Assembly: GCF_002224675.1 (NCBI RefSeq)
Contig: NZ_NMPZ01000004.1
Span: forward strand, 1-64,000
Source of the DNA: Segatella copri
GTDB taxonomy: Bacteria > Bacteroidota > Bacteroidia > Bacteroidales > Bacteroidaceae
Length of the DNA: 64,000 bases
Direction: 5' to 3'
In this document: piece by piece, positions 33,065 to 53,536 of the stretch
Numbering within the stretch: the first letter of the stretch is position 1
Layout: each line of letters opens with the position of its first letter
Made by a program: the position numbers and the translations under genes
Notes under the pieces: generated by a model
Databases searched by the model: none
What the model was told of the DNA's origin: nothing
Seen by the model: the letters and a program-made list of their open reading frames with translations, nothing else

Positions 33065-33225
33065 ATCGGTGCTAACTTTTTTCTAGACAGAAATCCGTTA
33101 AATTCCGACATAAAAAAAGCGTGAGATCGTCCTGTTGTCCATCCCACACATCGAGGCTCTTGCATTGCCTATTATAGTTGAACAGACAACGTCAGAGCCC
33201 ACGCCGATATGAATATATAAACTCC

Positions 33226-33399: not shown

Positions 33400-33567
33400 A
33401 CGCCTTCAATATGTCTGGACTGTCATCCCACCCAATGCCCGCTTTTGTATAGATATGTCAGATAAGTGACTTCACTACACTCAGCACGGCGTAGGCTGCC
33501 GACTCAGTTATCTTGAAAGAACACGTCTAACAGTGACAACTGCGGTCAAGCAAATACAGTCCGATTG

Positions 33568-33575
33568 CAAAAGTA
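33568..33575 (-). promoter_or_regulatory. candidate promoter of the NusG-like/clpV operon
   Basis: The minus strand reads TACTTTTG (TAnnTTTG). It would start a leader of about 500 nt before the NusG-like gene, which fits UpxY-type regulation, where the antiterminator acts on its own long leader. The -33 element is only a weak GTTG/TTGC match. The rest of 33,400-33,690 is AT-rich with no gene seen. Confidence 0.4.
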
Positions 33576-33694
33576 CGAAAATTAATTGAGAAAACAGCAA
33601 CAACAATTGAAAAAGTCTATCTTTTGCAGCAAATTTAAGATAATTTAAATCTATTTGCTTGAATATCTCTGAAATTATATATAATAATTACATC

Positions 33695-33739
33695 ATAATA
33701 GGTGGCAAACATATTATATATATGTCTGTCACCTATTAT
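33695..33739 (-). terminator. terminator after the methylase/helicase gene
   Basis: ATAATAGGTG (33695-33704) and CACCTATTAT (33730-33739) are perfect 10-bp arms, with further near-complementary bases inside (a run containing ACATAT/ATATGT). It lies 7 bp after the stop codon at 33746 on the minus strand. Confidence 0.65.
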
Positions 33740-33745
33740 AATATT

Positions 33746-37285: not shown

Positions 37286-40200
37286 CCAGGGTGTGTCGCA
37301 ATGATGAATCGCCACACACCGTTTTTGTGCGTTTACACCTGTACCCAACATGGATGTGGAGCCGAACAATACTCGTACCGATCCCTCGTTCATAGCTGCT
37401 ATCACCGCCTTTCTTGCCCTCTCGTTCTTGCATTCCTGAATGAAACGGATTTCAGACGACGGTATGCCGTAATCCTCTATCAGCTTGCGCTTGATTTCAG
37501 AATACACGTTCCATTCGCCCGGTCGGTATGTTCCCAAGTCTGAGAATACGAACTGCGTCCCCTTGTGATTGTCATAGCGTTTGTAATAGTCCGCTATCAT
37601 CTTGGCACAATGGCTCGCCTTGTTGTCGGGATGGTCCTCACAAGTCGGGTCTATCATGCGCATGTCGAGTGCCATCTTTCGGGCATAGTCTGTGGCTATG
37701 AGCATCTTCGCCTTTTCCTCTATTTCCGACAATGGCAGTCTGCCGAGGATGGTGGCATCACCCGTCTTGGCAAACTCCATCAGCTTTTGGATGAAGTCCT
37801 CCTGCTCGGGTGTCGGTGGTATGTTATGAAGGATCTCGTTCTTCTCCGGTCTGTCCACGCCAACCGCCTCCGCCGTGCGATAGTCGGTTATCTCGTTGTA
37901 GAAAGCAGCAAGCTCCGGTACCTTGATGAAGTATCGGAAACGCTCCTTCTGCACGATGTTGTTGGTAACGTTAAACTCGAAGTCGGTAGTTTTCTTGGCG
38001 AAAATTGCCGCCCACGCATCGAAACAGCGGATGTCCTGACGCTCCAGTTCCTTGGGGCGCAGGTACTTGAAGAGCAGATACAACTCAGTCAGTGAGTTAC
38101 TGATGGTTGTTCCCGACAGGAATGTCGCTCCAAGATCTCTGCCTGTCCGCTCCTGTATGGTACGGATAGCAAAGAGCATGTTGAGCGCCTTCTGGCTTCC
38201 CTCGCTGTTGCCGAGTCCTGCCACACGGTCGTGACGGGTATTGAACATAAGGTTCTTGAACTGGTGGCTCTCGTCCACAAACAAGTGGTCGATGCCCATC
38301 ATGCGGAAATCCACTACATCATCGGTGCGCTGCTCGATGCTGTAGGCTATCTTCTGCAACTTCACCTCCAGATTCTGCTTCCGCTTTTCCAAGCCTTTGA
38401 GCATTCCCCTCGACACGTCTTTGCCCTGCGTACGTATCACCTCCAAGTTTTCCTCCACGGTATCAAGCTCCGCCTGCAGTATCTGCCGTTGGAGTTCTGG
38501 CGATTGCGGTATCTTCCCGAACTGGTCATGCGACATGATTACACAGTCATAGTCGTTGTTCTTGATGTTGTTGAAGAAACTGACACGGTTCTTGGTGGAA
38601 AAGTCCTTCTCCGAGGCATAGAGTATCCTCGCATGGGGATAAGCTGTCTGATAGGTGGCGGCTATCTCCGCCACATTGGCTTTTAGTCCGATAATCATCG
38701 GCTTGTGAGCCATACCGAGGCGTTTCATCTCATGCGCAGCCATGCACATGATGAGGGTTTTGCCAGTACCGACCTCGTGATCACATATCCCGCCGCCGTT
38801 CTGCAAAAGCATCCATACACAGTCCTTCTGACTTGGGTACACACTCTTGACACCATACTTTCCGCCAAGGGCTTTCAGATCCAGACCGGGGAAGGTCTGG
38901 TGAGAACCGTCATACTTCGGACGCACAAAGCAGTTGAACTTCCGGTTGTACATTGTGGTCAAGCGTTCCTTAAAGGAGTCAGACTGCTCCTCCAGCCATT
39001 CAGTGAACCCGTTGCGGATTTCGTCAATCTTGGCATTGGCAAGCTGTATGCCCTCGCTGTCACGCACCTTGATGTCGTTGCCGTGTTCATCCTCACCGAT
39101 GCTCTTCATCATGTCGGGACAGGTGTTGTGCAGGGCATGTTTCAGAAGACTCATGCCGTCATAGTGGCGGTAATATCCCTTCACCATATACTCATCCGTG
39201 ATGGCCATGGTCTTCATACTGCATTTTGCCGAATATTCGTCCATGCTGTCGGAATAGACGATGCTGACCTGTGTATTGAAGAGGTGGCTCATGTAAGCGG
39301 AATACACACCTGTAGGTATCCAACGTTCACCGAAGTTGAAGTCCAGGTCCTCAAAGGCTATCGGTTCGGGAATGCTTGCCTTCAAGGCTTCCAACGACTC
39401 CCTCACGATTGCATGGTCGGGATTTTCCTTCAGCCATTCTTCTATACGCTCCGCTTTCTCTATGACATTACCAGCAATGAAGCGGTCGGCTATCTCGTAG
39501 CCGTCTATGAGCGGATTGTAATAGATGCGCCCTTTAAGCGCTTCCGTCAGTTCCGGTTCCGGCATATCCGATAATTCTGTCATATACGGCAAGTCGATAC
39601 GGCCGAACTTGTTGAGCGAGGCGGTGAGCGCTTCCTCTGGAGAATCCACATGACTGACCTCGTCAAGCGAAAAAGAGACCGGGTGGTCGAAGATGTCTGA
39701 TTTTGTGAACTGTCCGTTTTCCACCCGTTCCAACGACAGCATGTCGCGCCCTGAGGCATCCATAAGGATTAACTTCACGTTCTGCTTGGCATTGAGGTTG
39801 CCGAAGCGGATGAAGAAAGCATCATAATAGACATTCAGACTCTCACGCATCTGCTTGTTTTCCGTCTGTTCTTCCGCTTCATAGGTGTAAAGTTTCTGAT
39901 AGGCATCACGGAGGGCGATATACAGGACAGCCTTTTCTTTCTGCTCCATATTCAGATCCAACGGCATGAAGGTAGCACCATACTTGGTAAGGTCTTTCAA
40001 TACACCGATGTTTCTGGCAGAGTCGAGCACCATAGAACCCTCACGATGAAAACTTTCCAGTTTCTCATCAAATGGACGGGGCTTCATAGCATCCTCTTTC
40101 TTCCTTGCCTGCTCTTCCCGCATTCTTTCTTGCCCTTTTTGTTGTTCCCGCTCATGATTTGTTTCTTTCAATGTGCTCTGAGTCTTGGAATCTTCTTTTG

Positions 40201-42037
40201 GCTCATTCCCTTTCGACTGTCCATGCCCGATTTGAACTTTGAGAACTTCTATCGGTTCCATCGGCGGCTTGAACTTCGGATCAAGCGTATCTTCAACGCC
40301 CAAAGCCTTGAGTTGTTCCTGGCGGTGCAGTTCCGCCTTTTGGCGCAGCAGCACCCTGTCTTCGGGAGCCATGGTCATCATCATCTCGTAAAAGCCGTTG
40401 ATTGGCGGATTCTCTTCCCAAGAGATGCTTGCGTATGGTTCATCACCAGGCAGGATTGGTTTTGTCTCCTGTGTTGTTTCCTGCTCTTTTGCATCTGTCA
40501 ACGAAGGCTTTTCTTCTTTTTCCACAGGCTTTGTCACAACTTCAAAAGTCGGATTGACGCTTTTTACCAACGGACTTGCTTTCTTCCTTGACACTTTCTT
40601 GGCGGCAGCACCCACTGTTACCTCTGCTTTCTTCTTCGTTGAATGTACAGCCTGACGGTTTTCTTCTTCCATTCCCCAAAGGTCAAACAGAGTCATTTGG
40701 ACTGGTGGCTGCTGATGATTGGACTTTTGGGATAGCTCAGCATCATCAGTAGGCTTTTCCTGCTTTTGCAAGGATACTACCGTATCGTTCTGCTTTACCT
40801 CAATGGAAGGCTTTATCTTCTCTGTTTCTTCTATCTTTTCTGTTTCTTCAACCTCCTTAACTTCCTCAGCCTTGGTTTCCTCTATCCCCAAGTATCGGTT
40901 CAAATTGAGGTTCTTCTTAAAGTCTTCATGGAGCATCTTTCGCAAATCCTCTGCAATGCCTTCCACACCATCCTCATGCGTGTATATCATTGCAGGTTTG
41001 CCGAACGGGTCAGTATCCAACTTTGCCGTTGTATGGATAATGCGTTCCGGATGCTCAAGAAAGTAGTTGTTTGTCGGAATGCGGTTCTCGTCATTATAGA
41101 CAGTGTCAAGCAGGTTGTCGTCTCCTCGCAGCGACTCCTTTTGGCTGTTTTTCTGGAGAATGATGAGGTCACTGCCCACTTCCGTATTGGCATTTTCCGT
41201 GAACAGGTTGTTGGGAAGACGAATCGCTGACACGAGATCAGCATGATAGAGCATCATAAAACGCGCGGCACTGTTGTTTTTGGCATTCAATACGCCTTGT
41301 GAGGTGATGAAGGCAACTAACCCGCCGTCCCTTACCGTATCAAGAGCCTTGACAAAGAAGTAGTTGTGTATGCGTCTGGTGACAAGTGCCCTCATGCCTT
41401 TCATGGCTGTATAAGACGGATCAAATACGGCAACATCGCCAAAGGGAATATTTGAAATGGCGAGGTCGAAGTAATCATTGAAAGGCTTTTCTATCTTCTC
41501 GAATCCCTCTATGCGCACTTTCTGCTCCGGGTGCAGATGGCGGAGTATCTTTCCCGTAAGCAGGTCTTTTTCAAATGCCATAATGTCTGCCTTGGGATTG
41601 TTATCCAAGACGGAATCGACAAAGGCACCGATGCCTGCCGAGGGTTCAAGTACCTTTTCGGGGATAATCTGATGCTCTTTCAACACATCCATCAGAGCCT
41701 CCGTAACGGCTGACGGCGTGTAGAATGCCGTAAGGACGGACTGTTTCAGACTGTCCATCAACTGTTTGTACTCGCTTTCATTCTTGCTGTTTTCACGGAT
41801 AAGTCTATGCAGCTCCACGGTTGGAGCAAACAATTCAAGGTCTGACTTTGCCCAATGGACGGCATCCGCCAGTTCCCTGGCAGGGTTCAGGATGCACTTC
41901 AATCCACCGAATCCGCAATAACGCTCCAGAAGGAGACGCTCACGGGCGGTCGGCGTGCGCTGTTCCCTGTCAAGGATGAATGCTGTCTCTATCGCCTTGA
42001 TGTTGTCGTTCAGACGTTGTTTTCTATTGTACGCCAT
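37286..42037 (-). CDS. N-6 DNA methylase / SNF2 helicase, 5' exon
   Basis: The first 1,584 codons of a 1,936-residue protein (with 33746-34804). Methylase motifs are [16 protein letters not shown] near residue 136 (SAM binding) and AISNIPFG near 193 (catalytic NxPF type). A low-complexity linker follows (about 400-650), then a helicase with [14 protein letters not shown] (Walker A, about 1,140) and [10 protein letters not shown] (Walker B). Such giant proteins are conserved in Bacteroidales ICEs and are thought to protect or process transferred DNA; this is unproven. The 3' end is interrupted by the group II intron. Confidence 0.85.
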
Positions 42038-42473
42038 TTGACTCTATGAAAAGGGCTACGGCTCCCGTCAACTCTGTGTAGAGCTGGTCGTAGTCCGGTG
42101 ACTGGGCAAAATCGTCATCGGTGAGGTCGTAAATGGAATACACGTTGTCAACCAAAGGCAGGAGGTTCTTGACAAACGCTTCCTGGTCTTCTACTGCTAC
42201 CTCCAGGGGAAACTCACTGTCAACAACATCATACAGGATGCTGTACTTGGAAAAGCGGAGACCTTTCAGCAATGCTGCCATGGCAAGCTCTTGTGCCGCA
42301 TCGGCAAAGAGGGCATCACGCCGTGCCTGCTCATATACTTCTGCGGCATGGTCTGCACGTTCGCGGATAAAGTCCGCATCGCTGGCTTGTGGAAAACGGT
42401 TCTCTCTGAGGTGGTGCAAGAGGTACAGTCCGTAATAGGACAGCTCTGTCTGTGCCTGTTTCTTTCTGTTCAT
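42024..42473 (-). CDS. DUF1896 family protein
   Basis: A 149-residue protein, helical and acidic, matching the DUF1896 family found directly upstream of the large methylase/helicase gene in Bacteroidales ICEs. The start at 42473 ([15 protein letters not shown]) is preferred to 42578, because the longer form would include the topB terminator. The 3' end overlaps the methylase start by 14 bp, suggesting coupled translation and perhaps a common function. Confidence 0.75.
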
Positions 42474-42548
42474 TTGTCTGTTGAATGGATTAAGTGGTGA
42501 ATAATAAACCGTGGATGGCGGTTGGTGTTTGTGTGAAAGCAAGAAAAA

Positions 42549-42573
42549 GGCACTCGGTATCCCTCCGAGTGCC
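42549..42573 (-). terminator. intrinsic terminator after topB
   Basis: GGCACTCGG (42549-42557) and CCGAGTGCC (42565-42573) form 9-bp arms; on the minus strand the stem is followed by TTTTTCTT. It lies about 80 bp after the topB stop and before the DUF1896 gene. Confidence 0.7.
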
Positions 42574-42653
42574 GCCACTTAATCCACAGTAAATAAAAGC
42601 ATCCTGAATAAAGACACCATTTATGAACCATGTTTCGGTGGCAAAGGTACAAA

Positions 42654-44810
42654 CTATTTCTTGTATCTCTTCACATTTCCTCGCTTTTCTGCTGTTTTGC
42701 GCTCTGCAAAGACGAATTTCGTGTTGAAATTCTCGTCAAAGGCAATGGCTGCGGAGAACGATTTGCCTTGCTTGCTGGTGAAACCATTGAGCGTTCTGGT
42801 CTTGCCCTTGGTGAGCAAGTCGGTGATGTCGGCATCAGTGAGCAACTTTCCTGCTACCTGCTTGAACACTGGCATACCGCACTCCTTGTTGCTGCATCTT
42901 ACTACCTTTCCGAAGAACTGCATGGTACCTTGCTTGCATTTAGGACACTGGCAGCCGGAATCCTTGTGGCTGAAAAGTCTGTCACAACCTAACAATTCCG
43001 CAGTGATTTCACGGGTATAGCCTTCGATACTATGGGTGAACCCGTCTGCACTTGCTTCACCTCGTTCAATCTTGGCAAGTTCTGCCTCCCATTTGCCCGT
43101 CATCTCCACATTGGCAATCGCCATGTTCTTCACCACGGAATGCAGGGCGAGTCCTTTTTCCGTCGGCACAAGTTTCTTCTGCTGGCGCACCATATACTCT
43201 CGTTTGAGCAGGGTTTCGATGATGGCGGCACGTGTGGCAGGTGTGCCAATACCGCTGTCCTTCATTGCCTGGCGCATCGTATCATCTTCTATCTCTTTGC
43301 CTGCGGTCTCCATTGCTGCAAGCAATGTGGATTCCGTATGCAATGGCTTCGGTTTGGTCTTGCCCTCCGTGATGGTGCAGCCAGAAAAAGTGATATGCTG
43401 TCCTTCTTGCCAGTTGGGAATGACTTGATCCTTGACCTCATTGTCTGTTGCATCTGCATCCTTGTCCTGCCTTTTGTTCTTTTCCTTGAGCGACAACGCT
43501 CGCCAGCCAGTCTGTCGGATGATGGAGCCACTGATGCCAAACTCAACTTCATGATCCACTTGCGCCGTTACTGATGTGATGTCCTTGATGCAATCTGCCG
43601 AGAACGCTTCAATCATCCGGCACAATATCATGTCATAAACGATCTTCTCGTCCTTGAAAAGACCAATGGCTGCATTTTCTGTGATGAGCAGGGCATGGTG
43701 GTCGGTCACCTTGGCGGCATTCACGCTGTTCTTGCTGTAGTCCTCACTGCCAGGCAAGAGTTTCACTTTTTCTCCATATTCCGAATGATTCTCCAGATTC
43801 TTGAAGAGTTTGGGAAGGGTGGCAAATACATCATCCGAGATATAGCGGCTTGATGTTCTTGGATAGGTGATGAACTTTGCCTCGTAGAGTTTCTGGGCGA
43901 TGGAGAGTGTATGCTCTGCCGTGAAGCCATGCTGGGAGTTGGCTTCTTTCTGCAAGGTGGTGAGGTCGTAAAGGAGCGGTGCCTTCTCCACCTTTCGCTT
44001 GGTTGCGACCTTTGTGATGATGGCAGAACCGGTATCTTTCACCTTATTATATATAACGGTTGCGGTAGCTTTGTCTGTCCAGCGGTTGACTGATGTGAAC
44101 TTCAGTATATTGCCACTGTCTGCATCAACCACACCGAAGTGTACCTGCCAGAACGGTTTCGACTCGAAACGCTTGTGTTCCCAATAGCGTTCGCACACCA
44201 TGCCAAGGGTCGGGGTCTGCACACGACCTACGGAATAGGTGCCACGTCCTGCGGCTATCGTCAGGGCTTGTGTGCCGTTGATGCCGACGAGCCAGTCAGC
44301 TTCGCTTCTTGCCTTGGCTGCATGATAGAGATTGTCATACTCCTTGCCGTCCCTGAGGTTCAGAAGTCCCTCACGGATGGCGGTGTCCGTAAGCGAACTG
44401 ATCCAGAGACGGTCGAAAGGTTTCTGGCAACCGAGATACGCATAGAGGTATCGGAAAATCAACTCTCCCTCACGTCCGGCATCGGTTGCTACGATAATGC
44501 GCTCACTGCTGTCAAACAGCTTGCCGATAATTTTAATCTGGGCAAGCACACCTGCATCTGCTTTGTAGCCGTTCTCTGTCTTGACTTGTCGGGGAACAAG
44601 AATGAACGGGTCGGGAATCACAGGCAGATTCTCTGCATGGAATCCCTTCATGCCGTAGGTTTCCGGCATGGCAGGCTGCACTAAATGTCCGAATGCCCAT
44701 GTCACAAAATAGCCGTTACCCTGCATATAGCCTTCCTCACGCTTGTCAGCTCCCACAATGTGGGCGATTTCCTTGGCTACGCTTGGTTTCTCTGCGATGA
44801 TTGTCTTCAT
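42654..44810 (-). CDS. topB: DNA topoisomerase III
   Basis: A 718-residue type IA topoisomerase. The Toprim domain starts MKTIIAEKPSVAKEIA, the active-site tyrosine is in FITYPRTSSRYI (about residue 310), and a C-terminal zinc-finger region has CQCPKCKQGTM and CSNKECGMPVF, followed by a short basic tail. TopB relaxes or decatenates single-stranded intermediates and is standard ICE cargo beside the methylase/helicase gene. The start at 44810 is preferred to 44837 from family alignment. Confidence 0.92.
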   Translation of the reverse strand: MKTIIAEKPSVAKEIAHIVGADKREEGYMQGNGYFVTWAFGHLVQPAMPETYGMKGFHAENLPVIPDPFILVPRQVKTENGYKADAGVLAQIKIIGKLFDSSERIIVATDAGREGELIFRYLYAYLGCQKPFDRLWISSLTDTAIREGLLNLRDGKEYDNLYHAAKARSEADWLVGINGTQALTIAAGRGTYSVGRVQTPTLGMVCERYWEHKRFESKPFWQVHFGVVDADSGNILKFTSVNRWTDKATATVIYNKVKDTGSAIITKVATKRKVEKAPLLYDLTTLQKEANSQHGFTAEHTLSIAQKLYEAKFITYPRTSSRYISDDVFATLPKLFKNLENHSEYGEKVKLLPGSEDYSKNSVNAAKVTDHHALLITENAAIGLFKDEKIVYDMILCRMIEAFSADCIKDITSVTAQVDHEVEFGISGSIIRQTGWRALSLKEKNKRQDKDADATDNEVKDQVIPNWQEGQHITFSGCTITEGKTKPKPLHTESTLLAAMETAGKEIEDDTMRQAMKDSGIGTPATRAAIIETLLKREYMVRQQKKLVPTEKGLALHSVVKNMAIANVEMTGKWEAELAKIERGEASADGFTHSIEGYTREITAELLGCDRLFSHKDSGCQCPKCKQGTMQFFGKVVRCSNKECGMPVFKQVAGKLLTDADITDLLTKGKTRTLNGFTSKQGKSFSAAIAFDENFNTKFVFAERKTAEKRGNVKRYKK

Positions 44811-44908
44811 TGTCTGTTGTTTTTGTGACATCCGCAACCGTGGGATAGACGGTCGCAGATGTCGGTTGTTATAATGGATGATTAACTCTGTGGATCAAGT
44901 GGCGGCAA

Positions 44909-46567
44909 CTACATCTTCACGCTTCTTGCCTTTCTCTTTGGCTTCTGTTCCTCGGCGTTCTGTTCCTTCTGCTGCTTTTCGTTCTTTGGCGCAGACTGTC
45001 CCGGACTCAGCGGCTCCTTGGTGTGCTTGGTCGCCTCATGGGTCTTGCCCTGCTCGTTGACGGCGACTTGTACCTTGTTCTCATTGGTCGGAATCTGTTC
45101 CTTCGCCTGTTTGAGGTCTGGATTGTTGCGGTAGGAACGTGGCTGCATCTTGTCGAAGTCGAACTTTACATAGGCGGTATAGGTACCGCTGCCGTTCTTG
45201 TTGGGCACTTCCTTGATCTCGATGGTCTTGCCTGCCACATAGTCGTCCTTCTGCTGCTCGGTCAGTTCCTTCTTGAAATAGGTGTTGAGTCGGCGGATGG
45301 TCCCGTCCTCATTGAGCCAGTGGTTGGGATCTTGCTGCTTCTTCTGACCGCCCGCATCACCTTCTGCCTTCTGCTCCTGCTTGTCAGCGGTCTGCTTCTT
45401 GTCTCCATTCTGTTTCTGACCTTGCGCCTGTCTTGTGCTGCCAGGCACGAACTCCACACCACGCTGTTCCACATTCACCTGCAGCAGCGGTGTAAACTTG
45501 CGCCCGTTGGCAAGCTCAATCTCCTTGCGAAGCGGAATACCTGAGTAGAGCACTCTCTTGTCGTCCTTGGTAATAGGTGTCTTGCCGATGGTATCGGGTA
45601 TGCGCACCTTGTTGGTCGGGATGTCAACAATCTCATTGGTGAGACGGTCGATACTGATGAAATGAGGACGCAGCTCACCTGTATTCTTGTCGGGGAAATC
45701 CACTACCTTTCCGAGGTTGCCGTTCTGCAACAGGTTCTTCTTGTCCTCTGGAGTGAAGGTATAGCCTTTGTAAGCGACATCGAGTTTTGGCTCGTTGCGC
45801 ACGAAATGCGGCACGAGTTGCAACTGGTCGTTATCGTCCTTGCGGAATGACAGACGGGCCTGTATCTCTATCTGTTCACCGCCGAAGGTCGGCTTCACAA
45901 TCACAAGCCCCGTCTTGCCGTAGTTGAGCAGGGCTTTCATATCCTTCTCATTCATACTGTTGAAGTCTATGCCATATTTGGCACCAAGTTCCTGCAGGTT
46001 CACATCGTTACCACTAATGAGGTTCTGCTTTACACCCGGAGCGGTCTGTGCCTGCTGTTCGGTTGCGGTCTGTTCTGGTTTCTGTTCCATGTCGTTCTTC
46101 TTTTCGTTGGTTTGTTCAGATGATACATTCTCTTTTTCGGTGTTAGCCTGCGTCTTGGACGCATCGTCCGATGATGCGGTTTCTTTCGCCTGACCTTCCG
46201 ATTGCTTTGCCTCTTTCTCATAATTGGAGGTGTCAACCTTGTGGGCGGAAAGAATCTCCTTGTTAGCCTCCGGATCTTTCAGCAACTCCTTCATCACGCC
46301 AAGCAGGTTTTCTGCCTGGTCTGCCGCTATGCGGTAGAATCCGAATCGGCTTGGCTCCTTGCACTGGCGGAAGAAGTTTCTAAAGAAACTGTCCATCAGG
46401 TCACTGTTGCGGTCAAAACGCAGGAAGTCGGGCGTGTTCTCCGCCTTGGCGGGTGCTCGCTTCGGGGTGCCGTCCCTGCTGAGTCCGGCGACGACGCTGA
46501 TCTCGCCCGTCTTCTCGTCACGGACTACCAGCACGTCCTGTTCATCACTCTTTTTCTTTTGTACCAT
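44909..46567 (-). CDS. DUF3945/DUF4099 domain protein
   Basis: A 552-residue protein typical of Bacteroidales ICEs. The N-terminal 110 residues form one conserved block (DFLRFDRNSDLMDSFFRNFF), a low-complexity acidic linker follows (about 115-185), then DUF4099/DUF3945-type repeats with KYGIDFNSMNEKDMKALLNYG, and a very basic tail. The domain organisation suggests a nucleic-acid-associated scaffold, but no biochemical function is known. It is transcribed with topB and lies downstream of two helix-turn-helix genes. Confidence 0.75.
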   Translation of the reverse strand: MVQKKKSDEQDVLVVRDEKTGEISVVAGLSRDGTPKRAPAKAENTPDFLRFDRNSDLMDSFFRNFFRQCKEPSRFGFYRIAADQAENLLGVMKELLKDPEANKEILSAHKVDTSNYEKEAKQSEGQAKETASSDDASKTQANTEKENVSSEQTNEKKNDMEQKPEQTATEQQAQTAPGVKQNLISGNDVNLQELGAKYGIDFNSMNEKDMKALLNYGKTGLVIVKPTFGGEQIEIQARLSFRKDDNDQLQLVPHFVRNEPKLDVAYKGYTFTPEDKKNLLQNGNLGKVVDFPDKNTGELRPHFISIDRLTNEIVDIPTNKVRIPDTIGKTPITKDDKRVLYSGIPLRKEIELANGRKFTPLLQVNVEQRGVEFVPGSTRQAQGQKQNGDKKQTADKQEQKAEGDAGGQKKQQDPNHWLNEDGTIRRLNTYFKKELTEQQKDDYVAGKTIEIKEVPNKNGSGTYTAYVKFDFDKMQPRSYRNNPDLKQAKEQIPTNENKVQVAVNEQGKTHEATKHTKEPLSPGQSAPKNEKQQKEQNAEEQKPKRKARSVKM

Positions 46568-46598
46568 AATTGTAAATTTTTAATGGTGAATACTGTTG

Positions 46599-46958
46599 TT
46601 ATTTGAATTTCTGATGAATGCGAGTCAAGTAATGCTCCACATTCTCTTTCTTGAATTCTTTGACATTATTCTCTACAAACTGCATCACATCCTCTTCCGT
46701 GTAGTAGGTTTTCTGCCCCAAACGCTTGTAGGGAAGCACTCCCAGACTGCGATAGCGTTGAAGGGAACGAGGGGATATTTGAAATAAGAGGCAGAGGTCT
46801 TGGTTGTCGAGCAATTTTTCATTGATGGCAGAACTTCCTTTTTGCTCCGTCTCTCGTTCGTGTCTCAACATCAGCATGTCGTAGATGCCGTCTATCTTTT
46901 TGTGTAGGTCATGGAGATATAACTCCAGTTTTCTCAATGTTCCATCTTCCATGCTCAT
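46599..46958 (-). CDS. MerR/excisionase-like helix-turn-helix protein
   Basis: A 119-residue protein. The C-terminal half has a winged-helix, excisionase-type DNA-binding domain (LLDNQDLCLLFQISPRSLQRYRS, then YYTEEDVMQFV) after a helical N-terminus. Such proteins act as excision or operon regulators in CTnDOT-like elements. It overlaps the preceding gene by 4 bp, so the two are coupled. Confidence 0.7.
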   Translation of the reverse strand: MSMEDGTLRKLELYLHDLHKKIDGIYDMLMLRHERETEQKGSSAINEKLLDNQDLCLLFQISPRSLQRYRSLGVLPYKRLGQKTYYTEEDVMQFVENNVKEFKKENVEHYLTRIHQKFK

Positions 46959-47254
46959 GTTTCCTTTGCTATTGTTCGTTCCTCAACCATTCTTTCAATG
47001 GCTTCAACTTGGTATCGGCATTGATTACCAATTTTAATAAAATCAATGCGGTTCTCTGAGCGCATTCTCTGCAAGGTGCGCTTGCTCACACCAAGCATCT
47101 TAGCTGCATCGTCATTGGTCAACATCGGCTTCAATCCCTTACCCGTCAAGTTCTCTTGAAATGCCATTTTTGCCAATCGCACGTACTGGACTATTTCTGT
47201 CAACTGTTCTGTCAGCTTTTTGAAGGCTGCACTTTCCATTGTTATTACTTCCAT
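46955..47254 (-). CDS. excisionase-like helix-turn-helix protein
   Basis: A 99-residue DNA-binding protein with the motif LTNDDAAKMLGVSKRTLQRM, typical of the excisionase/HTH_17 family. The start at 47254 is preferred to 47308. A -7 box TAATTTTG (47306-47313, minus strand) lies about 50 bp upstream. It is divergent from a plus-strand paralogue at 47496, from which it is separated by a 240-bp regulatory region. It probably regulates the topB-side operon. Confidence 0.7.
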   Translation of the reverse strand: MEVITMESAAFKKLTEQLTEIVQYVRLAKMAFQENLTGKGLKPMLTNDDAAKMLGVSKRTLQRMRSENRIDFIKIGNQCRYQVEAIERMVEERTIAKET

Positions 47255-47431
47255 TCTAATTCCGTTTGAAATGTTATATAATTCGTTGTTTTTATTTCTC
47301 GGCGGCAAAATTAACCATTTGCGAAATACCCGTTTAACAACTCATTAATGACCCACGTATAATTTTCTTGATTTTTCTTGCCAAGCGGTCGGCAAACCCC
47401 AGAAAAGCACTGCCACAGTTATTCATTTTCA

Positions 47432-47461
47432 TTGTTTTTCTACATGCACACATTAACTTTG
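47432..47461 (+). promoter_or_regulatory. promoter of plus-strand HTH genes
   Basis: TTG (47432-47434), a 19-bp spacer, then TAACTTTG (47454-47461) match the Bacteroidetes consensus upstream of the gene at 47496. Confidence 0.5.
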
Positions 47462-47495
47462 CATCCGAATTTGTTGAACCAATAAAACAGAGAAT

Positions 47496-47783
47496 ATGGA
47501 AGTAGTAACAATGGAAAAGAAGGCATTCGACTTGATGATGGCAAGATACGATGCCCTGGTAAAGAAAGTTGAGTTGCTGAAGCATAAGGCTAACGGCAAG
47601 CGTCTGAACAAATGGCTTACAGGTCATGAGGTCTGCCAGCAACTTCGCATCAGCCAGCGCACCTTACAAAAACTTCGTGACCGCCGTTTCTTGGGGCATA
47701 CCCAGATAGGTCGCCAATTCTATTACTGCCCCGAAGAGGTCAAAGCCATCGTTCCGCTTATCGCCAGAATCAAATCGGTATAG
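47496..47783 (+). CDS. Xis2c-like helix-turn-helix protein
   Basis: A 95-residue basic protein with a central excisionase-type domain (LTGHEVCQQLRISQRTLQKL) and the wing IGRQFYYCPEEVKAI. By size and order it resembles the Xis2c/Xis2d pair of CTnDOT, small proteins needed with IntDOT for excision. A stem-loop terminator follows (47796-47834). Confidence 0.7.
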   Translation: MEVVTMEKKAFDLMMARYDALVKKVELLKHKANGKRLNKWLTGHEVCQQLRISQRTLQKLRDRRFLGHTQIGRQFYYCPEEVKAIVPLIARIKSV

Positions 47784-47795
47784 CATAAAACCAAA

Positions 47796-47834
47796 CTCGC
47801 CCAAGGCAAAGCCGAAAACTTCACCCTGGGCGAG
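47796..47834 (+). terminator. stem-loop between the two xis-like genes
   Basis: CTCGCCCAAGG (47796-47806) and CCCTGGGCGAG (47824-47834) form 11-bp arms with one mismatch, right after the Xis2c-like gene. It may reduce read-through into the next gene. Confidence 0.55.
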
Positions 47835-47876
47835 CCAACACATTTTATATTCACCACTTAATCCAAATTGTAAACA

Positions 47877-48212
47877 ATGAACATGAACCAACTTCTTACG
47901 CATGAGAGCAAGTCGATAGACACCGCCATGCAATCCTTGAAGAAAGCCAACAACTGGCTATCCTCATTCATCGAGTCCTACAGCCCACCTTTGGACGGGG
48001 AGCGATACCTCACCGACAAGGAACTCTCCGAGCTCCTGAAGCTTAGTCGCCGTACCTTGCAGGAATATCGCAGGCAAGGCATCTTGCCCTACATTATATT
48101 ATGTGGCAAAACCCTCTATCCGGAATCCGAGATACAAGCACTTCTCACTGGTAATTACCGCAAGCCGATAATCGACGGCACTGTTTCACAAGGGGAGGGT
48201 ACTGCTTCATAA
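47877..48212 (+). CDS. Xis2d-like helix-turn-helix protein
   Basis: A 111-residue protein with an excisionase-type motif (LTDKELSELLKLSRRTLQEYRR) at residues about 44-66, preceded by a helical N-terminus. It follows the Xis2c-like gene on the same strand and lies close to the integrase, as expected for an excision factor. Confidence 0.7.
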   Translation: MNMNQLLTHESKSIDTAMQSLKKANNWLSSFIESYSPPLDGERYLTDKELSELLKLSRRTLQEYRRQGILPYIILCGKTLYPESEIQALLTGNYRKPIIDGTVSQGEGTAS

Positions 48213-48224
48213 TAGCGAAACAAA

Positions 48225-48273
48225 AATAGCGTACAGGGTACAACGACAAAAATCGTTCCCCCCGTACGCTATT
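48225..48273. terminator. bidirectional terminator
   Basis: AATAGCGTAC (48225-48234) and GTACGCTATT (48264-48273) are perfect 10-bp arms with an inner AACGA/TCGTT stem. It lies between the plus-strand xis-like gene and the minus-strand gene ending at 48316, so it can serve both. Confidence 0.65.
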
Positions 48274-48315
48274 ATATTATAAAGGTGTAGGAATCTTATT
48301 AAAAGATGAGAGATT

Positions 48316-48711
48316 CTAACTTGCACCTCTTGGCATCGTTCCGTTCATCACAATAATCATCGGATACTCGTGTTTTACTTGCTCTGCTTGGCAATCCTTG
48401 CGGTTTACTACCTTACTGATAAACCATTGTCTGAACAACAAGGCTTGGTATGTATCCATTTGAAGTGCTATGGCGATAATCACTTCCATATCATAGACAT
48501 GCGCAGAATATCCATTTTCAAGTTTGATGTATTGAGAATGCTGGAAATCTTTCAGCACACTTTGTTTCCAAATGCGCTTGATGGTATTCTTCACTGCTGT
48601 CCCTGTTACATTCAACAGTTCGGCAATCTCCCAAACAGTCATCCACACCTCACCATGATGTGGGGCGTAGATGACCATATCTTCTTGTATTGTTATCACT
48701 TGTCGTTTCAT
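48316..48711 (-). CDS. hypothetical protein encoded after the integrase
   Basis: A 131-residue protein, not assigned to a named family. Residues about 22-45 (VWMTVWEIAELLNVTGTAVKNTI) look like a helix-turn-helix, and the rest is helical. Its start overlaps the integrase stop by 4 bp, so it is translationally coupled to int and may modulate integration or excision. Confidence 0.55.
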   Translation of the reverse strand: MKRQVITIQEDMVIYAPHHGEVWMTVWEIAELLNVTGTAVKNTIKRIWKQSVLKDFQHSQYIKLENGYSAHVYDMEVIIAIALQMDTYQALLFRQWFISKVVNRKDCQAEQVKHEYPMIIVMNGTMPRGAS

Positions 48712-49979
48712 ACTCTGCCATTTATAGTGTTAGTATTATCGTTGCAAACATTTCCAAACGTGAATTCCTCAATGTTATTTATTTGCTGAGACAACTTTTC
48801 CACGTCTTTGCTCAATTTCTCCTTGGTAATCTTGGCATACACCTGGGTTGTCTTTATGTCCTTGTGACCAAGCATTGAACTCACGGTTTCTATTGGAACT
48901 CCGTTGGAGAGGCAAACCGAGGTTGCGAACGAATGACGGCTCATGTGCCAGGAAAGCGGCTTGGTAATACCACATTTTTTGCCCAGTCTTTTGAGCGAAT
49001 CCATACAACTTTGGTAGTTGGGTACTGGAAACACCCTGCCGTCTTCACTCAATCCACGGTATTTTTCCATAATTTGCTTGGGATAATCAAGCAACTTGAT
49101 GTTGGCTTCCGTTCCAGTCTTCTGTCGATGGATAACGATCCATTCACCTTCATCGAAAAATTCCTTGATGTTCTCTTCCTTCAAGTTGTACAGATCAATG
49201 AAAGCGAGACCTGTAAAACAGCAGAACAGGAACAAGTCACGCACCATACTCATCTTCTTTCTTGTGATAGGTGTTTCCATCAACAGGTGAATCTCTTCTT
49301 TGCTCAGAAACTCTCTTGTGGTCTCTTCTTCCTTGTACTCATATCGTCTGAATGGGTCTTTTACGAGCCATTCATTATCTATGGCACGGAATACCATTGC
49401 ACGGAGATTGCGGACAAACACCATCGCAGAGTTTATCTTCAAGTGCTTGTCGGTTCTGAGAAAAGTCTCGTAGTCTGTTATAAAAGGCAGCGATAACTCT
49501 TTCAGAGCAATATCCTTCACATGGTAATGTGTCTGCAAGAACTCGCCCACATAGGCACACCCGATTCTATACTTCGTGTATGTACTCAAAGATTTCATGC
49601 CAGCCTTATATTGCTTTTCCATTTCATCACGGCTTTGAGAATAGACTTTCATCAGTGTATGGCAACGATACTCCAAGCCAAGAAAGGCGTTCTTCACCTT
49701 GTCGGCAGTGACGAAGTTGTCCCTGTCCATAATCTCCTGATAATGCTTGCTGATACTCACACGCATCTTGTCCAATTTGCGGTTCACCTCCAAAGCCTGC
49801 ATACTCTTACCTATCATGCGTCCGCCCTTAGTGTCCCACAAATCTGGATTGGCAGTTGTCTTGCAACTGAACTGCGCCTGTGTTCCGTCCACTGTGATAC
49901 GTCCCATAACTGGAACAGTACCATCTTTCTTTACTACCTGTCTTTTGAGGTAGAAGATAATTGAAAATGTACTCTTCAT
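48708..49979 (-). CDS. int: IntDOT-type tyrosine recombinase
   Basis: A 423-residue site-specific recombinase that would integrate and excise the element. The catalytic residues fall at positions very close to those reported for IntDOT: K287, H345, R348, H372 and the nucleophile Y381. The first arginine of the usual tyrosine-recombinase set is missing; A259 in FTGLAFID occupies that place, comparable to S259 of IntDOT. The start at 49979 (MKSTFSIIFYLKRQ) is preferred to 50003. The gene lies at the presumed ICE end, next to a repeat-rich region. Confidence 0.9.
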   Translation of the reverse strand: MKSTFSIIFYLKRQVVKKDGTVPVMGRITVDGTQAQFSCKTTANPDLWDTKGGRMIGKSMQALEVNRKLDKMRVSISKHYQEIMDRDNFVTADKVKNAFLGLEYRCHTLMKVYSQSRDEMEKQYKAGMKSLSTYTKYRIGCAYVGEFLQTHYHVKDIALKELSLPFITDYETFLRTDKHLKINSAMVFVRNLRAMVFRAIDNEWLVKDPFRRYEYKEEETTREFLSKEEIHLLMETPITRKKMSMVRDLFLFCCFTGLAFIDLYNLKEENIKEFFDEGEWIVIHRQKTGTEANIKLLDYPKQIMEKYRGLSEDGRVFPVPNYQSCMDSLKRLGKKCGITKPLSWHMSRHSFATSVCLSNGVPIETVSSMLGHKDIKTTQVYAKITKEKLSKDVEKLSQQINNIEEFTFGNVCNDNTNTINGRV

Positions 49980-50060
49980 AACGTCATTCTTTTTTGCGTT
50001 CAAAATTAATACATGAAGAGTCTTTTCTTGCTACGCATTTCACGGCAGAACACGGCAAAT

Positions 50061-50298
50061 TTGGTTCGTAACCAAAAATCTTACGTTACTCATCAGTAAC
50101 TCACTATAAATCAGAGTATTCAAATTCAATTCGTAACCTTCCTCATTCTTCCGAACCTTAACATTCCTCATTTGGGGTATAGGTTACGGATAGGTAACGT
50201 TCCTCTGTCTCATCTTGTCGTATTCCCGTCTTCGTCTGTCCTCGCCACTTTTAACCAAAATGAGGAAAGTAACTGATAACCAGTAAACTTTCCTCATT
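50061..50298. other. repeat-rich putative attachment region at the ICE end
   Basis: This 300-bp gap upstream of int contains no gene. It holds a palindrome TTGGTT-CGT-AACCAA (50061-50075), three TTCCTCATT copies (50139-50147, 50164-50172, 50290-50298), an inverted copy at 50259-50267, and several GTAAC/GGTTACG motifs. The 12-bp arms AATGAGGAAAGT (50259-50270) and ACTTTCCTCATT (50287-50298) form a near-perfect hairpin. These could be integrase or excisionase arm sites. The exact att core is not identifiable without the other ICE end. Confidence 0.5.
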
Positions 50299-50315
50299 CT
50301 TCTCTCAAACACTTT

Positions 50316-51749
50316 TTATATGTACTTTCTGGTAATGAATGTAATCTTTTCGTTTTCAATATTGAGCAGATCTTTATCTTCTACTTGGTTAATTATTTGT
50401 ATCAAATCGCTCCAATCCATTTTGTTTTGTCCCCTTCTTGTATCTACATTATTTTCATCTTTCGCCCACAAACCATCGAAGTAATTTCTTCTAATGCGAC
50501 GTGTAAATGCTGTCAGCTGTTTTGTATTAGGATGTTCTGCTAACAATGCAATCAGTGGCAAAACGATATCCAGATCAGCATTTCTAAGCCATTGCCAGAC
50601 ATTTTCTTGATTATCTAGGGCTATATCCTTATTCTGTCTTCTATAAATACTATGCAGAATAGTCTGAAGCTCAACATCGCTAGATATTTTTTCAACAAGT
50701 CTTGTCAATGCCTTAAAATACTTTTCAATATTGTCAAGAGAACGGAATTTCTCATAATTTTCCATCTCTTTCGTCTTTGTTGGAGCACTTATAAACAGAT
50801 TTCTTGGATTCAAAGGCACAGGTTTTTCATTCACCGAAACTCTTTCCTTCATAAGTCCAATCTGCCAATACCACATAAAAAAAACTTGCATGCCATTGTC
50901 TGAAGTTGTGTCAGTCCCACGGTGATTCCAGAACCATTCTTCTCTATCTTCCCATTGGTCTGAATACAATTGGACTTGCTCCTTGGTTAATTTGGAATTA
51001 CCAAGAAGTACTGGCTTGATGTTTTCTGTGGGTGATAAAGGCTCACCTGTAGTGTTTATTATAACATAAGTTTCTTCTCCTCTTGAACGGTTCTCCATGT
51101 CATAATAGAGAACTCTAAGATTGTTCAAAACAAATTTTCCAAGTTCCAAAAAACAATTAAATTCCAACGAATTAAATACATTATCTATGATTTGTAGCGC
51201 AGCAGTCATGCTTTGGATAGATGCATCGTTGTCGTATTCGGCAAAATACCAGTTTGATAGTTTTATATCAGTAACTCTTGTATTTCTTTCGATGAACACG
51301 TTACGTGAAAGATCGCTTAAGAAATAAAGGGTACTTTCACGGATTGCATATTGCAGATGAGGTTCATAATCGTCTTCTCTTTCCTGCTTTGAGATAATAT
51401 AATCATCATATACGCCAGAACACTTAATGTTTATGTAGCCCAAAAGTAAAAAAAGAGTAGTCAATCTTTGTTGACCATCACATATCTGGATATGATTATG
51501 TGGTTGTTCGTATCCGTAAATTAGCCCCATAGTAAGGGATGAGCCATTTTTTTCTTCAAATAACTCGATAATATTTTTAACAAAGTCAGATACTAGTTCC
51601 TTAGTCTTGCTAGACTTTGGGTCAGTAACTGCATAATTACCCCAGCAATAATCACGTTGCAGATCAGGGATGATAATCTTTGTATCACCTCCAAACAGGT
51701 CTGCTAATGAGTAATCTCTGCCACTAATAAAACTTATAACCTTATTCAT
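50316..51749 (-). CDS. DUF262 domain protein
   Basis: A 477-residue DUF262 protein. The hallmark ICDGQQRLTTLFLLLGYI is at about residue 94, with TMGLIYGYEQ before it and VIINTTGEPLSPTENIKP further on. DUF262 (ParB/Srx-like fold) is the nucleotide-binding part of GmrSD-type type IV restriction systems. No DUF1524 nuclease domain is seen here, whereas the adjacent gene has one. The two genes are 2 bp apart and presumably act together in phage defence. Substrate unknown. Confidence 0.8.
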   Translation of the reverse strand: MNKVISFISGRDYSLADLFGGDTKIIIPDLQRDYCWGNYAVTDPKSSKTKELVSDFVKNIIELFEEKNGSSLTMGLIYGYEQPHNHIQICDGQQRLTTLFLLLGYINIKCSGVYDDYIISKQEREDDYEPHLQYAIRESTLYFLSDLSRNVFIERNTRVTDIKLSNWYFAEYDNDASIQSMTAALQIIDNVFNSLEFNCFLELGKFVLNNLRVLYYDMENRSRGEETYVIINTTGEPLSPTENIKPVLLGNSKLTKEQVQLYSDQWEDREEWFWNHRGTDTTSDNGMQVFFMWYWQIGLMKERVSVNEKPVPLNPRNLFISAPTKTKEMENYEKFRSLDNIEKYFKALTRLVEKISSDVELQTILHSIYRRQNKDIALDNQENVWQWLRNADLDIVLPLIALLAEHPNTKQLTAFTRRIRRNYFDGLWAKDENNVDTRRGQNKMDWSDLIQIINQVEDKDLLNIENEKITFITRKYI

Positions 51750-51751
51750 GT

Positions 51752-53536
51752 CTAATCTAAATTGTATAATTTCTTAAAAAGATTGAGAAACTTATCTGCG
51801 CTCTTTTCTATATCTTCTATTTCCCACTTACTGTTAGCAAACGAGGAGATAGTATGAAGTAAATTTCTACTTTCGAAGCATCTTTCATTATTGAAAAACT
51901 TTTGTTTTTTTTCTTCAAAAGATAGTTTGCCAAATTCAGAATTATCTTTACCATACAGCAGTACGAGATTTCCGATACAATGTTCGCTATATCTTGAATT
52001 GTTGCTGAATACGGCCTGTGAATCCTTCAAATCTGAAATTTGGTCTTTTTCCAGCTCTGTACCATCTCCCCTAATATATGTTTCCGTATTATGGTCTTTA
52101 TCATATTCTGTATGATAGAACTTTGATTTTGGATATATATGCTCTAGAGATTTATTTTCCCATATTGAAAAATCAAATTTCACACCATTCTGTGCATTAA
52201 GTCTGTTATACTCAGTAACGTTAAGCCATAATAACTGCTTTAAGGCTGCGTCATTTTCGACATTATAGACATGAGCTTTTGACAGTTTCTCTAATATAAT
52301 CTTTGCTTTTTCTACTCGCTTTTCTGAATTAGGAGTTCGCTTTTCTGTATTTATAGCATCGATAGTATATTCTTCTACAATTTCTTTATGAGTACATCCA
52401 ACTAAACGCCACTTGGCGTAATCATTCATTGCTTCATAATCACGTTTGTGTTCCAGAAAGTATATAATTATATTATATTTATCGTCTGCCTCACCATTTG
52501 AGCCAATAAGAGAAAGTTTCAGGTAATTATATGATGTTGGTGCATTAAAGACATCCTCGAATTCTTTTTGTAAATCGCGAAGTTCCTTAAATACTTCTTT
52601 TGCTCTTGTTTTATTCCCATCAGGAATAAGTTGCTTAAATGATTTGTAGGAAAATTCATTTTTTGAACCTGATTTCTTCTTGAAATAATATTCAAGGAGC
52701 AATCCCATTGGCTTATTGACATTAAAGAACTCCTTGACATCTTTTCTATTCCACCAATAAAGCCATTTGTCCCATTCTCTAGCATATTTAGAGCGTAGTG
52801 CGTTGGTTTCCCATTCAACAGATATGATTTCTTGAAGAACAGCATATGTGTCTTCTACACTTCTCATTTTTGGGAGGCCTTTAATCTCTTCAGGAAGTGA
52901 AACGATATGGAGCATCTCTGCTTTAATGAGTTCTTCATCATGCATAATAGCTTTTTGTCCGTTCATCATTGTAAATGTACGGACAGCTTTAGTGCGATCT
53001 ATGACGATATAAAGAAGACTTATTTTATTCAAAAGATAATTCAAGAAATCAGTCCTGTCTGTAATCTCTGCAATGAGCTTGTTTATTTGGCTGATTGCCT
53101 GCTTAAAATAGTAGATGTCTTGAATTTTGTTATCAGGATCAAATGAGTTGTAGTCAAATTCTGGTTCTTTCAGTTTCTCCAGGAACTCTTTTGATTGCTT
53201 TCGAATACTATAGTTCAAAGAAATATCTTTATGTATTATATTTTTAGGGTCAAGACACCACAATAAGAGATATAATGTTGTAGTTCTCTGTTGTCCATCT
53301 ATTAGGGTTACTTCATTACCCTCTTCAACAACAGTCATTCCTTGAAGAAAATACTGCTGGTTAGGATTATTACGATAGGAGTCAATAAGGCGAGAAACCA
53401 AATACTCAACCGAAGTCTCGTCTTTGGATTCTCTAACAGACCACTTATACCCCCTTTGGTAGCTCGGTATGATGAATGTTTTACTACCATTATCTGGGTA
53501 AAAATACTCCTTAAGAGTTTTGAAATTTGTTGCCAT
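51752..53536 (-). CDS. DUF262-DUF1524 (GmrSD-like) protein
   Basis: A 594-residue protein with an N-terminal DUF262 domain (VTLIDGQQRTTTLYLLLWC at about residue 75) and a C-terminal DUF1524 HNH-type nuclease: LEHIYPKSKF carries the His, and CIGNLVLLYGKDNSEFG is the conserved end. This is the architecture of single-chain GmrSD enzymes, which cleave modified phage DNA. The paired DUF262-only partner downstream is unusual compared with classic GmrSD. Confidence 0.85.
   Translation of the reverse strand: MATNFKTLKEYFYPDNGSKTFIIPSYQRGYKWSVRESKDETSVEYLVSRLIDSYRNNPNQQYFLQGMTVVEEGNEVTLIDGQQRTTTLYLLLWCLDPKNIIHKDISLNYSIRKQSKEFLEKLKEPEFDYNSFDPDNKIQDIYYFKQAISQINKLIAEITDRTDFLNYLLNKISLLYIVIDRTKAVRTFTMMNGQKAIMHDEELIKAEMLHIVSLPEEIKGLPKMRSVEDTYAVLQEIISVEWETNALRSKYAREWDKWLYWWNRKDVKEFFNVNKPMGLLLEYYFKKKSGSKNEFSYKSFKQLIPDGNKTRAKEVFKELRDLQKEFEDVFNAPTSYNYLKLSLIGSNGEADDKYNIIIYFLEHKRDYEAMNDYAKWRLVGCTHKEIVEEYTIDAINTEKRTPNSEKRVEKAKIILEKLSKAHVYNVENDAALKQLLWLNVTEYNRLNAQNGVKFDFSIWENKSLEHIYPKSKFYHTEYDKDHNTETYIRGDGTELEKDQISDLKDSQAVFSNNSRYSEHCIGNLVLLYGKDNSEFGKLSFEEKKQKFFNNERCFESRNLLHTISSFANSKWEIEDIEKSADKFLNLFKKLYNLD

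What the first reader, a model, noticed from the sequence alone, without database searches (positions are those of the whole stretch)
50316..53536. Two-gene DUF262 system beside the ICE end
A DUF262-only protein is paired, with a 2-bp gap, with a DUF262-DUF1524 protein. Known GmrSD enzymes are either one fused chain or a DUF262 plus DUF1524 pair; a fused enzyme plus an additional DUF262 protein suggests a variant with regulatory or double recognition. The location directly beside the integrase end suggests an insertion hotspot for defence genes.
Basis: partly seen in the sequence, partly recalled or inferred. Interest (0 to 1): 0.58.

Follow-up and report, generated by a model that had tools for sequence, protein, structure and literature searches.

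The report
Phage-defence operon split by mobile element
The two genes look like a known kind of two-part bacterial anti-phage enzyme, but here the second gene has been cut in two by an inserted mobile element that carries tetracycline resistance, so the unusual short partner protein is a broken piece rather than a new design.

Summary
The ORFs and domains are as reported: B (51752-53536, minus, DUF262+DUF1524) and A (50316-51749, minus, DUF262), 2 bp apart. But A is only the 5' part of a gene. In 64 of 68 related loci A is 629-837 aa; the four closest (59-66% identical) are 760-772 aa, against 477 here. A's stop codon lies in the end sequence of a Tet(Q)-carrying CTnDOT-type ICE, and A's missing 3' part (51% identical to the closest relative) lies on another contig of the same genome, abutting the other ICE end. 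The ICE integrated inside A. The intact pair is a conserved unit: 68 of 68 A genes have B directly upstream. Its layout (nuclease gene first, then DUF262 with a long C-terminus) matches GrwAB, a published two-protein type IV restriction system of Vibrio cholerae; TgvAB is similar. So this is a new member of a known kind, probably inactive here. No hotspot: ten related ICEs have ten different flanks. Left open: the insertion as a reversible off-switch, and extended operons with a DEDDh exonuclease and a PLD-like protein.

The parts
51752..53536 (-). gene B, 594 aa, DUF262 (GmrSD_N) + DUF1524 (GmrSD_C); intact; first gene of the pair
   Evidence: Q27 R28, DGQQR 80-84, F188, N192, H466, N523, N532 are invariant in 49 of 49 aligned sequences including this one; AlphaFold2 pLDDT 90.8, best PDB matches SspE and BrxU
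50316..51749 (-). gene A, 5' fragment only (477-aa ORF; homology to intact relatives ends at residue ~465), DUF262
   Evidence: residues 1-465 match residues 1-474 of the 772-aa homologue in L087 at 66%; the last codons and the stop are in ICE-end DNA
50310..50329 (+). proximal end of the ICE, inside gene A; chromosome-derived sequence begins at about 50330
   Evidence: aligned with ten related ICE ends that share CACTTTTTTGTAGTAACTTTG and then diverge; the window carries a diverged version
48708..50003 (-). ICE tyrosine recombinase (integrase), 431 aa
   Evidence: Pfam PF00589, PF13102, PF17293; XerA/XerC/XerD-like NCBIfam matches, all below their cut-offs
1..50329 (.). left part of the window read as part of a CTnDOT-type ICE (its other end is on another contig, G000:C47); extent inferred
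   Evidence: Tet(Q) 26943-29216, MobB 6780-8033, MobC 8071-10077 over their cut-offs; topoisomerase III-like 42654-44837, hybrid-kinase-like and sigma-54-regulator-like 11934-15547 below theirs; the window begins at base 1 of contig C4
53675..53682 (-). promoter-like TAnnTTTG box about 140 bp upstream of B
   Evidence: read from sequence; the consensus is recalled, not scanned

Best explanation
The locus is a GrwAB-like (two-protein GmrSD-family, type IV) restriction operon whose second gene was split when a Tet(Q) CTnDOT-type ICE integrated into it. In the intact state, as in relatives, the first protein (B) would bind and hydrolyse NTP through its DUF262 domain and cut DNA with its C-terminal His-Me nuclease, and the second (A, about 765 aa: DUF262, helical middle, C-terminal region without a recognised nuclease) would be an obligatory partner that helps recognise modified phage DNA or licenses the nuclease. 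Here B is intact, but A's reading frame ends at about residue 465 of 765, so the system is most likely inactive while the ICE stays in place. Shown by sequence: domains, invariant residues, truncation, presence and position of the missing part, ICE ends, conservation of the pair. Inferred: modification-dependent restriction and need for both proteins (from published GrwAB/TgvAB experiments), and loss of function. My odds: A is split by the ICE 0.95; GrwAB-like class 0.75; inactive in this genome 0.7. The confidence below is for the account as a whole with its main claim, the split.
For: Truncation: A homologues are 629-837 aa in 64 of 68 loci; of the other four, L151 and L154 run off the contig end and L101 and L113 stop 113 and 61 bp before one. 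The closest relatives L087-L090 are 760-772 aa; homologues in three same-genus genomes continue 282-342 aa past the break. Missing part: one place in the own genome matches the C-terminal part of L087's protein (G000:C47:7156-7989, E 5.5e-97), and one place is a close match to the N-terminal part. The fragments match L087 residues 1-474 and 488-762 of 772. ICE on both sides: the proximal end aligns with ten related ICE ends and has no second copy in the genome longer than 40 bp. The distal junction on C47 aligns with distal ICE ends in three genomes (scores 73, 94, 94 against a best of 45, 39, 41 in 1000 shuffles each), and the far end of C47 matches 7 of the 10 other ICE-bearing genomes, in four of which it lies 51-58 kb from the integrase end on the same contig (coordinates). 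Pair: 68 of 68. Precedent: GrwA/GrwB layout, both genes required; the two catalytic Asn are 9 apart in 49 of 49, as in GrwA N521/N530.
Against: The two halves lie on different contigs, so linkage through the ICE is inferred, not read through. About 13 residues of the homologue between the fragments are not covered by homology, and I did not test whether the flanks' reading frames are in register. blastn did not detect the distal-junction similarity; a local alignment with shuffles did, on three of the four distal stretches fetched. In 3 of 10 ICE-bearing genomes the far end of C47 had no match, and in one (G084) the two ends are only about 4.5 kb apart. A first search for the missing part with a more distant alignment found nothing. 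No GrwAB or TgvAB sequence was held, so relatedness to them rests on layout, residue spacing and published text; GrwA's His-to-Asn spacing (90) lies just outside the range here (17-82). The A fragment keeps the DUF262 domain and most of the helical middle, so partial function is possible. No experiment.
Confidence: 0.85

Rival explanations
1. The 477-aa A is a complete, functional DUF262-only partner (a shortened natural variant), and the ICE merely integrated at its end.
For: The ORF keeps the QR, DGQQR and FxxxN-type motifs and has a clean stop. TgvA is described as resembling GmrSD only in its DUF262 domain.
Against: The stop codon lies in ICE-end DNA. The ~290-codon remainder exists next to the other ICE end. 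None of the 64 A genes that are not at or near a contig end is shorter than 629 aa. Positions conserved in the family beyond the break (E496 34 of 42, K499 39 of 42, G522 39 of 42, L087 numbering) are lost from the ORF.
Confidence: 0.08
2. Insertion as a reversible switch: while the ICE is integrated the defence operon is off; ICE excision restores A in a subpopulation, so defence and element mobility are coupled.
For: Neither A fragment shows decay: both are open, and the 3' part is 51% identical to L087, where intact relatives L088-L090 are 42-44% identical to L087 in that part. The ICE has an integrase ORF, regulator-like and mobilisation genes.
Against: The same facts fit a recent accidental insertion. 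No second genome with this insertion appeared among the genomes searched. Relatives of this ICE sit at varied sites. Whether excision would leave an open frame was not tested.
Confidence: 0.12
3. The pair is ICE cargo and the true ICE end lies upstream of B, so A was never split by the element.
For: A TAnnTTTG-like sequence, which resembles CTnDOT core sites (recalled), occurs upstream of B (53675-53682).
Against: Ten related ICEs end at the position where A's homology begins, and the remainder of A abuts the opposite ICE end. The box upstream of B also reads as an ordinary promoter element (recalled consensus).
Confidence: 0.03

Closest known systems
GrwAB (GmrSD-like type IV restriction of WASA V. 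cholerae; PMC12137116)
   Same: First gene DUF262+DUF1524, second gene N-terminal DUF262 with a long C-terminus; QR, DGQQR and FxxxN motifs; Asn-Asn spacing of 9 in the nuclease; reported to need both genes
   Different: Sequence relatedness to V. cholerae GrwAB not tested (no sequence held); second gene split by an ICE here; some Bacteroidota relatives carry DEDDh exonuclease, PLD-like or WYL genes nearby
[quoted passage not shown] PMC11411939)
   Same: Two proteins, both with DUF262, one with DUF1524; both required; 1,341 homologous pairs reported, including Bacteroides fragilis
   Different: The DUF262-only gene appears to come first there (read from the text); the nuclease gene comes first here; no type I RM gene found next to the pair in this window
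GmrSD / BrxU / SspE (single-chain DUF262-DUF1524 enzymes)
   Same: B has the same two Pfam domains and its model matches SspE and BrxU best in the PDB
   Different: These are typically single-protein enzymes; here a second DUF262 protein is encoded next to the enzyme in 68 of 68 loci (seeded on that second protein)
CTnDOT-family ICEs of Bacteroidota
   Same: Tet(Q), MobB/MobC, tyrosine recombinase, conserved end sequences; the family name itself is recalled
   Different: About 71-74% DNA identity to the ten related integrase-end regions; integrated at a diverged core inside a defence-type gene

Membership tests
GmrSD family (type IV restriction) | DUF262 domain with DGQQR NTP-binding motif | tested here: met
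   Pfam GmrSD_N over cut-off in both; DGQQR in 49 of 49 B and 42 of 42 intact A sequences aligned; present in the window's A
GmrSD family (type IV restriction) | DUF1524 His-Me nuclease with catalytic His and Asn | tested here: met
   Pfam GmrSD_C over cut-off in B; H466, N523, N532 in 49 of 49
GmrSD family (type IV restriction) | cleavage of modified DNA only | not testable with these tools
   needs biochemistry or plaque assays
GrwAB-like two-gene systems | nuclease-bearing DUF262 gene followed by a DUF262 gene with extended C-terminus | tested here: met
   met by the family: B then A in 68 of 68 loci, A 629-837 aa in 64 of 68. In the window itself the second gene is in two pieces
GrwAB-like two-gene systems | sequence homology of the second protein's C-terminus to GrwB | not tested
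   no GrwB sequence was held; the paper says its C-terminal domains are of unknown function
GrwAB-like two-gene systems | both proteins needed; restriction of phages with modified DNA | not testable with these tools
   reported for GrwAB; no experiment here
TgvAB | DUF262-only gene (tgvA) first, nuclease gene (tgvB) second | tested here: not met
   nuclease gene first in the window and in 68 of 68 loci; the tgvA-first order is read from locus numbers and a passage of PMC11411939
TgvAB | embedded in a type I RM locus (not required of all homologues, which also occur alone) | tested here: not met
   none of the six other genes scanned between 48.7 and 60.4 kb matched a type I RM family; the far flank of A on contig C47 was not scanned in full
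CTnDOT-family ICE | tyrosine recombinase, Tet(Q), Mob genes, shared end sequences | tested here: met
   the transfer operon was not looked for

The most novel reading that the evidence does not exclude
A tetracycline-resistance ICE sits in the second gene of a two-protein type IV restriction operon and so switches the restriction system off while it resides there; because both gene halves remain undecayed, excision could restore the system, coupling ICE mobility (tetracycline-induced in this ICE family, as recalled) to phage and plasmid defence. Active-lysogeny-like control of a defence operon by an ICE would be new to me; paper searches listed nothing on it.
Probability: 0.1. Interest if true: 0.75.

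Novelty: new member of a known kind. Interest (0 to 1): 0.36.

Why it matters
It corrects a false lead: a short DUF262-only partner would have suggested a new design, whereas it is a gene broken by a mobile element. It also adds a large, consistent set of intact pairs, mainly from Bacteroidota, to the emerging two-protein GmrSD family (GrwAB/TgvAB), some with an exonuclease and a PLD-like gene in the same apparent operon; that gives material for finding out why two DUF262 proteins are needed. And it is a concrete case in which a resistance-carrying ICE has disrupted a restriction-type gene; in two other loci of the survey gene A also stops early shortly before a contig end, in one of them ahead of a sequence that reads like a transposase start.

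Tried and rejected
Considered and rejected: A as a complete DUF262-only protein; pair as ICE cargo; hotspot for defence genes at the ICE end (ten related ICEs, ten flanks; only the DUF4435 gene beside L061 could be defence-related, by recall; what was scanned is the longest ORF in each short flank, not always the nearest). PADLOC gave only partial matches of B and A to HEC-06, Orf5 and SspE models; NCBIfam gave no useful model for B or A. Sequence search of the PDB gave nothing meaningful for B and weak matches of A to DUF262 and SspE chains (best E 0.0005). A search for A's missing part with a three-sequence C-terminal alignment found nothing in the own genome; the search with the closer homologue L087 found it. 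Plasmid collection: 11 records for B and 18 for the intact A homologue, all under 60% identity; phage collection: 1 record for B, an unannotated 7.9-kb record from faeces at 63% identity; viral contigs: 14 weak relatives of B, at most 42% in the best segment. The C-terminal ~220-250 residues of the intact A model had no convincing match in the rows shown, but that part was hardly tested by those searches. Paper searches: searches were read as listings; passages were read of PMC11411939, PMC4619093, PMC10952713, PMC12409362 and PMC12137116 and one whole section of PMC12137116. Searches listed no report of an ICE splitting a two-gene GmrSD system; that covers this library and those terms only. 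Rows dropped: the mirror-tree test used 63 of 68 loci plus the window (A over 600 aa, B over 500 aa); alignment A4 used 42 of 68 loci and A5 48 of 68 plus the window, chosen by hand for completeness and spread. Some of the 68 loci are near-identical (for example L098/L099 and L128-L130), so counts are not independent.
Full report
What is there. The minus strand carries two ORFs, 51752-53536 (594 aa, called B here) and 50316-51749 (477 aa, A), with a 2-bp gap and B first. B has GmrSD_N (DUF262) and GmrSD_C (DUF1524) domains over Pfam's cut-offs; A has GmrSD_N only. The genome is in the same genus as G003 and G001, whose contig lengths (255,472 and 102,697) equal those of contigs of Prevotella vespertina and of a Prevotella MAG.

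A is not complete. Three same-genus genomes hold strong matches to both proteins; their A proteins are 730-796 aa, and in the alignment the window's A stops at about residue 465 while they go on. A scan of genome contigs with an A alignment gave 68 loci. In 64 of 68, A is 629-837 aa; of the other four, two run off the contig end (L151, L154) and two stop 113 and 61 bp before one (L101, L113). The four closest relatives (59-66% identity) are 760-772 aa.

The ICE end is inside A. A 701-base stretch around the junction was searched in 393 genomes of the order; 30 matched (the own genome included), and the ten best others are integrase-end regions of related ICEs. All ten share the end sequence CACTTTTTTGTAGTAACTTTG, after which the flanks diverge, judged by eye on the alignment. 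The window has a diverged version of that end at 50310-50329, and the stop codon of the 477-aa ORF (50316-50318) lies within it. Chromosome-derived sequence therefore starts at about 50330, in the middle of gene A.

The rest of A exists. A search of the own genome with the C-terminal 307 residues of the closest homologue (L087) found one place, G000:C47:7156-7989 minus, 52% identity, E 5.5e-97. An earlier search with a more distant three-sequence alignment had found nothing, and a search with the whole G044 homologue had found the N-terminal part at C4 plus weak DUF262 matches. Compared separately with L087, the window's fragment matches residues 1-474 and the C47 fragment residues 488-762 of 772. 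On C47 the fragment abuts a sequence that aligns with distal ends of related ICEs: scores 73, 94 and 94 in three genomes, against a best of 45, 39 and 41 in 1000 shuffles each; blastn had not detected this similarity, and the fourth distal stretch fetched (G351) was not aligned. The far end of C47, about 2 kb further in, matches 7 of the 10 other ICE-bearing genomes. With the coordinates, the two ends lie 51-58 kb apart on one contig in four genomes (G336, G351, G415, G447), about 4.5 kb apart in G084, and on different contigs in G210 and G325. The proximal end has no second copy longer than 40 bp in the genome. A 196-bp relic of the distal end (96%) lies on contig C3. The simplest account is one ICE inserted in one A gene. 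Tet(Q) (1520 bits, cut-off 1425), MobB and MobC are over their cut-offs; the topoisomerase III-like protein and a kinase-regulator pair are below theirs. That this is the CTnDOT family is from recall of its gene set.

Is the gene decaying? The C47 fragment is 51% identical to L087, while intact relatives L088-L090 are 42-44% identical to L087 over that part; the N-terminal figures are 66% and 63-65% (blastp for the fragments, MAFFT for the relatives). So neither fragment shows extra divergence. That fits a recent insertion or continued selection and does not tell them apart. I did not test whether the frames of the two flanks are in register.

The pair is a unit. In 68 of 68 loci a B-like gene lies directly upstream of A on the same strand, mostly with overlapping ORFs (ORFs were taken from the first possible start, so overlaps are upper bounds); one locus (L154) has a 200-bp gap before a damaged A. 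Pairwise distances of A and B correlate (r 0.92, 64 sequences, 0 of 2000 permutations), although shared ancestry of the hosts also contributes. The survey was seeded on A, so it cannot show B without A; in the 100-genome search with B the three strong matches all had A. In B, Q27, R28, DGQQR, F188, N192, H466, N523 and N532 are invariant in 49 of 49 aligned sequences; in intact A, QR, DGQQR and N232 in 42 of 42. From residue 300 of A onward no His is conserved in 80% or more of the 42, so A is not evidently a nuclease.

Structure. AlphaFold2 gives B at pLDDT 90.8, with SspE and BrxU as the best PDB matches (E 6e-7 to 4e-4, TM-scores 0.3 or less over the whole chain). The intact A homologue (L087, pLDDT 84.5) matches SspE, DndI and BrxU between residues 8 and about 555 (Z 15.7, 15.5 and 6.1; rmsd 15.5, 8.7 and 12.3; Foldseek). 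The ICE cut falls at about residue 474 of 772, after the DUF262 domain and most of the helical middle.

How it most likely works. The published two-protein systems give the model. In GrwAB (PMC12137116; passages and section 11 read) the first protein has DUF262 and DUF1524 and the second an N-terminal DUF262 followed by domains of unknown function; both are required, and changes in DGQQR of either protein or in the nuclease residues abolish protection; phages with sugar-modified cytosine or 7-deazaguanine are among those targeted. TgvAB (PMC11411939; passages read) is a second such system. The intact form of this locus has the GrwAB layout, and the two catalytic Asn are 9 residues apart in 49 of 49, as in GrwA; GrwA's Arg-to-His spacing (350) falls in the range here (340-420), but its His-to-Asn spacing (90) is just outside (17-82). 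I could not compare sequences with GrwAB or TgvAB because none was held. By analogy the split A should leave B without its partner and the system inactive, but that is inference.

Surroundings. The hotspot idea is not supported: the genes scanned next to ten related ICE ends are varied, with at most one possible defence gene. In the 68 loci, recurrent neighbours are a DEDDh exonuclease (RNase_T) in 24, WYL regulators in 23, a PLD-like protein in 13 and an AAA ATPase in 13; the exonuclease lies within 100 bp upstream of B in 13 and the PLD-like gene within 20 bp downstream of A in 9 (domains; the PLD-like protein resembles DrmC and the ATPase IetA). No background rate was measured, and some loci are near-identical. 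In the window a WYL regulator and an RlaP nucleotidyltransferase lie upstream of B; RlaP was found in 0 of 68 loci.

Verdict. It is a member of a known kind of two-protein type IV restriction system, probably inactivated by an ICE. The most interesting possibility left is that the insertion is a reversible switch.

Noticed in passing
G000:C5 about 126566-130459 (L042:6567-10460, minus): A second tandem DUF262 pair in the same genome: a 682-aa DUF262 protein with a sub-threshold DUF1524 match and a 611-aa DUF262+DUF7834 protein.
   Followed up: partly
L113 (Prevotella cerevisiae) 3266-4246 and L101 5126-6145: Gene A also stops early in two other loci, 61 and 113 bp before a contig end; in L113 the following sequence reads like the start of a transposase (by eye). 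B is full-length in both.
   Followed up: partly
L124, L134, L136 (flanks of the B-A pair): Apparent four-gene operons: DEDDh exonuclease, B, A, PLD-like protein.
   Followed up: partly
window 53978-56169: WYL regulator and RlaP nucleotidyltransferase, 8 bp apart, upstream of B; WYL genes recur near the pair in other loci, RlaP does not.
   Followed up: partly
window 33746-42037: A group II intron reverse transcriptase (34923-36698) lies between two ORFs (33746-35050 and 37265-42037) that may be parts of one large ICE gene.
   Followed up: no
G000:C3:182459-182654: A 196-bp copy of the ICE distal end (96%); the matching stops there, so it may be a relic.
   Followed up: partly
window 58060-59394 and 59639-60430: A DUF2130 protein and a 263-aa protein without a Pfam match; not examined further.
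   Followed up: no
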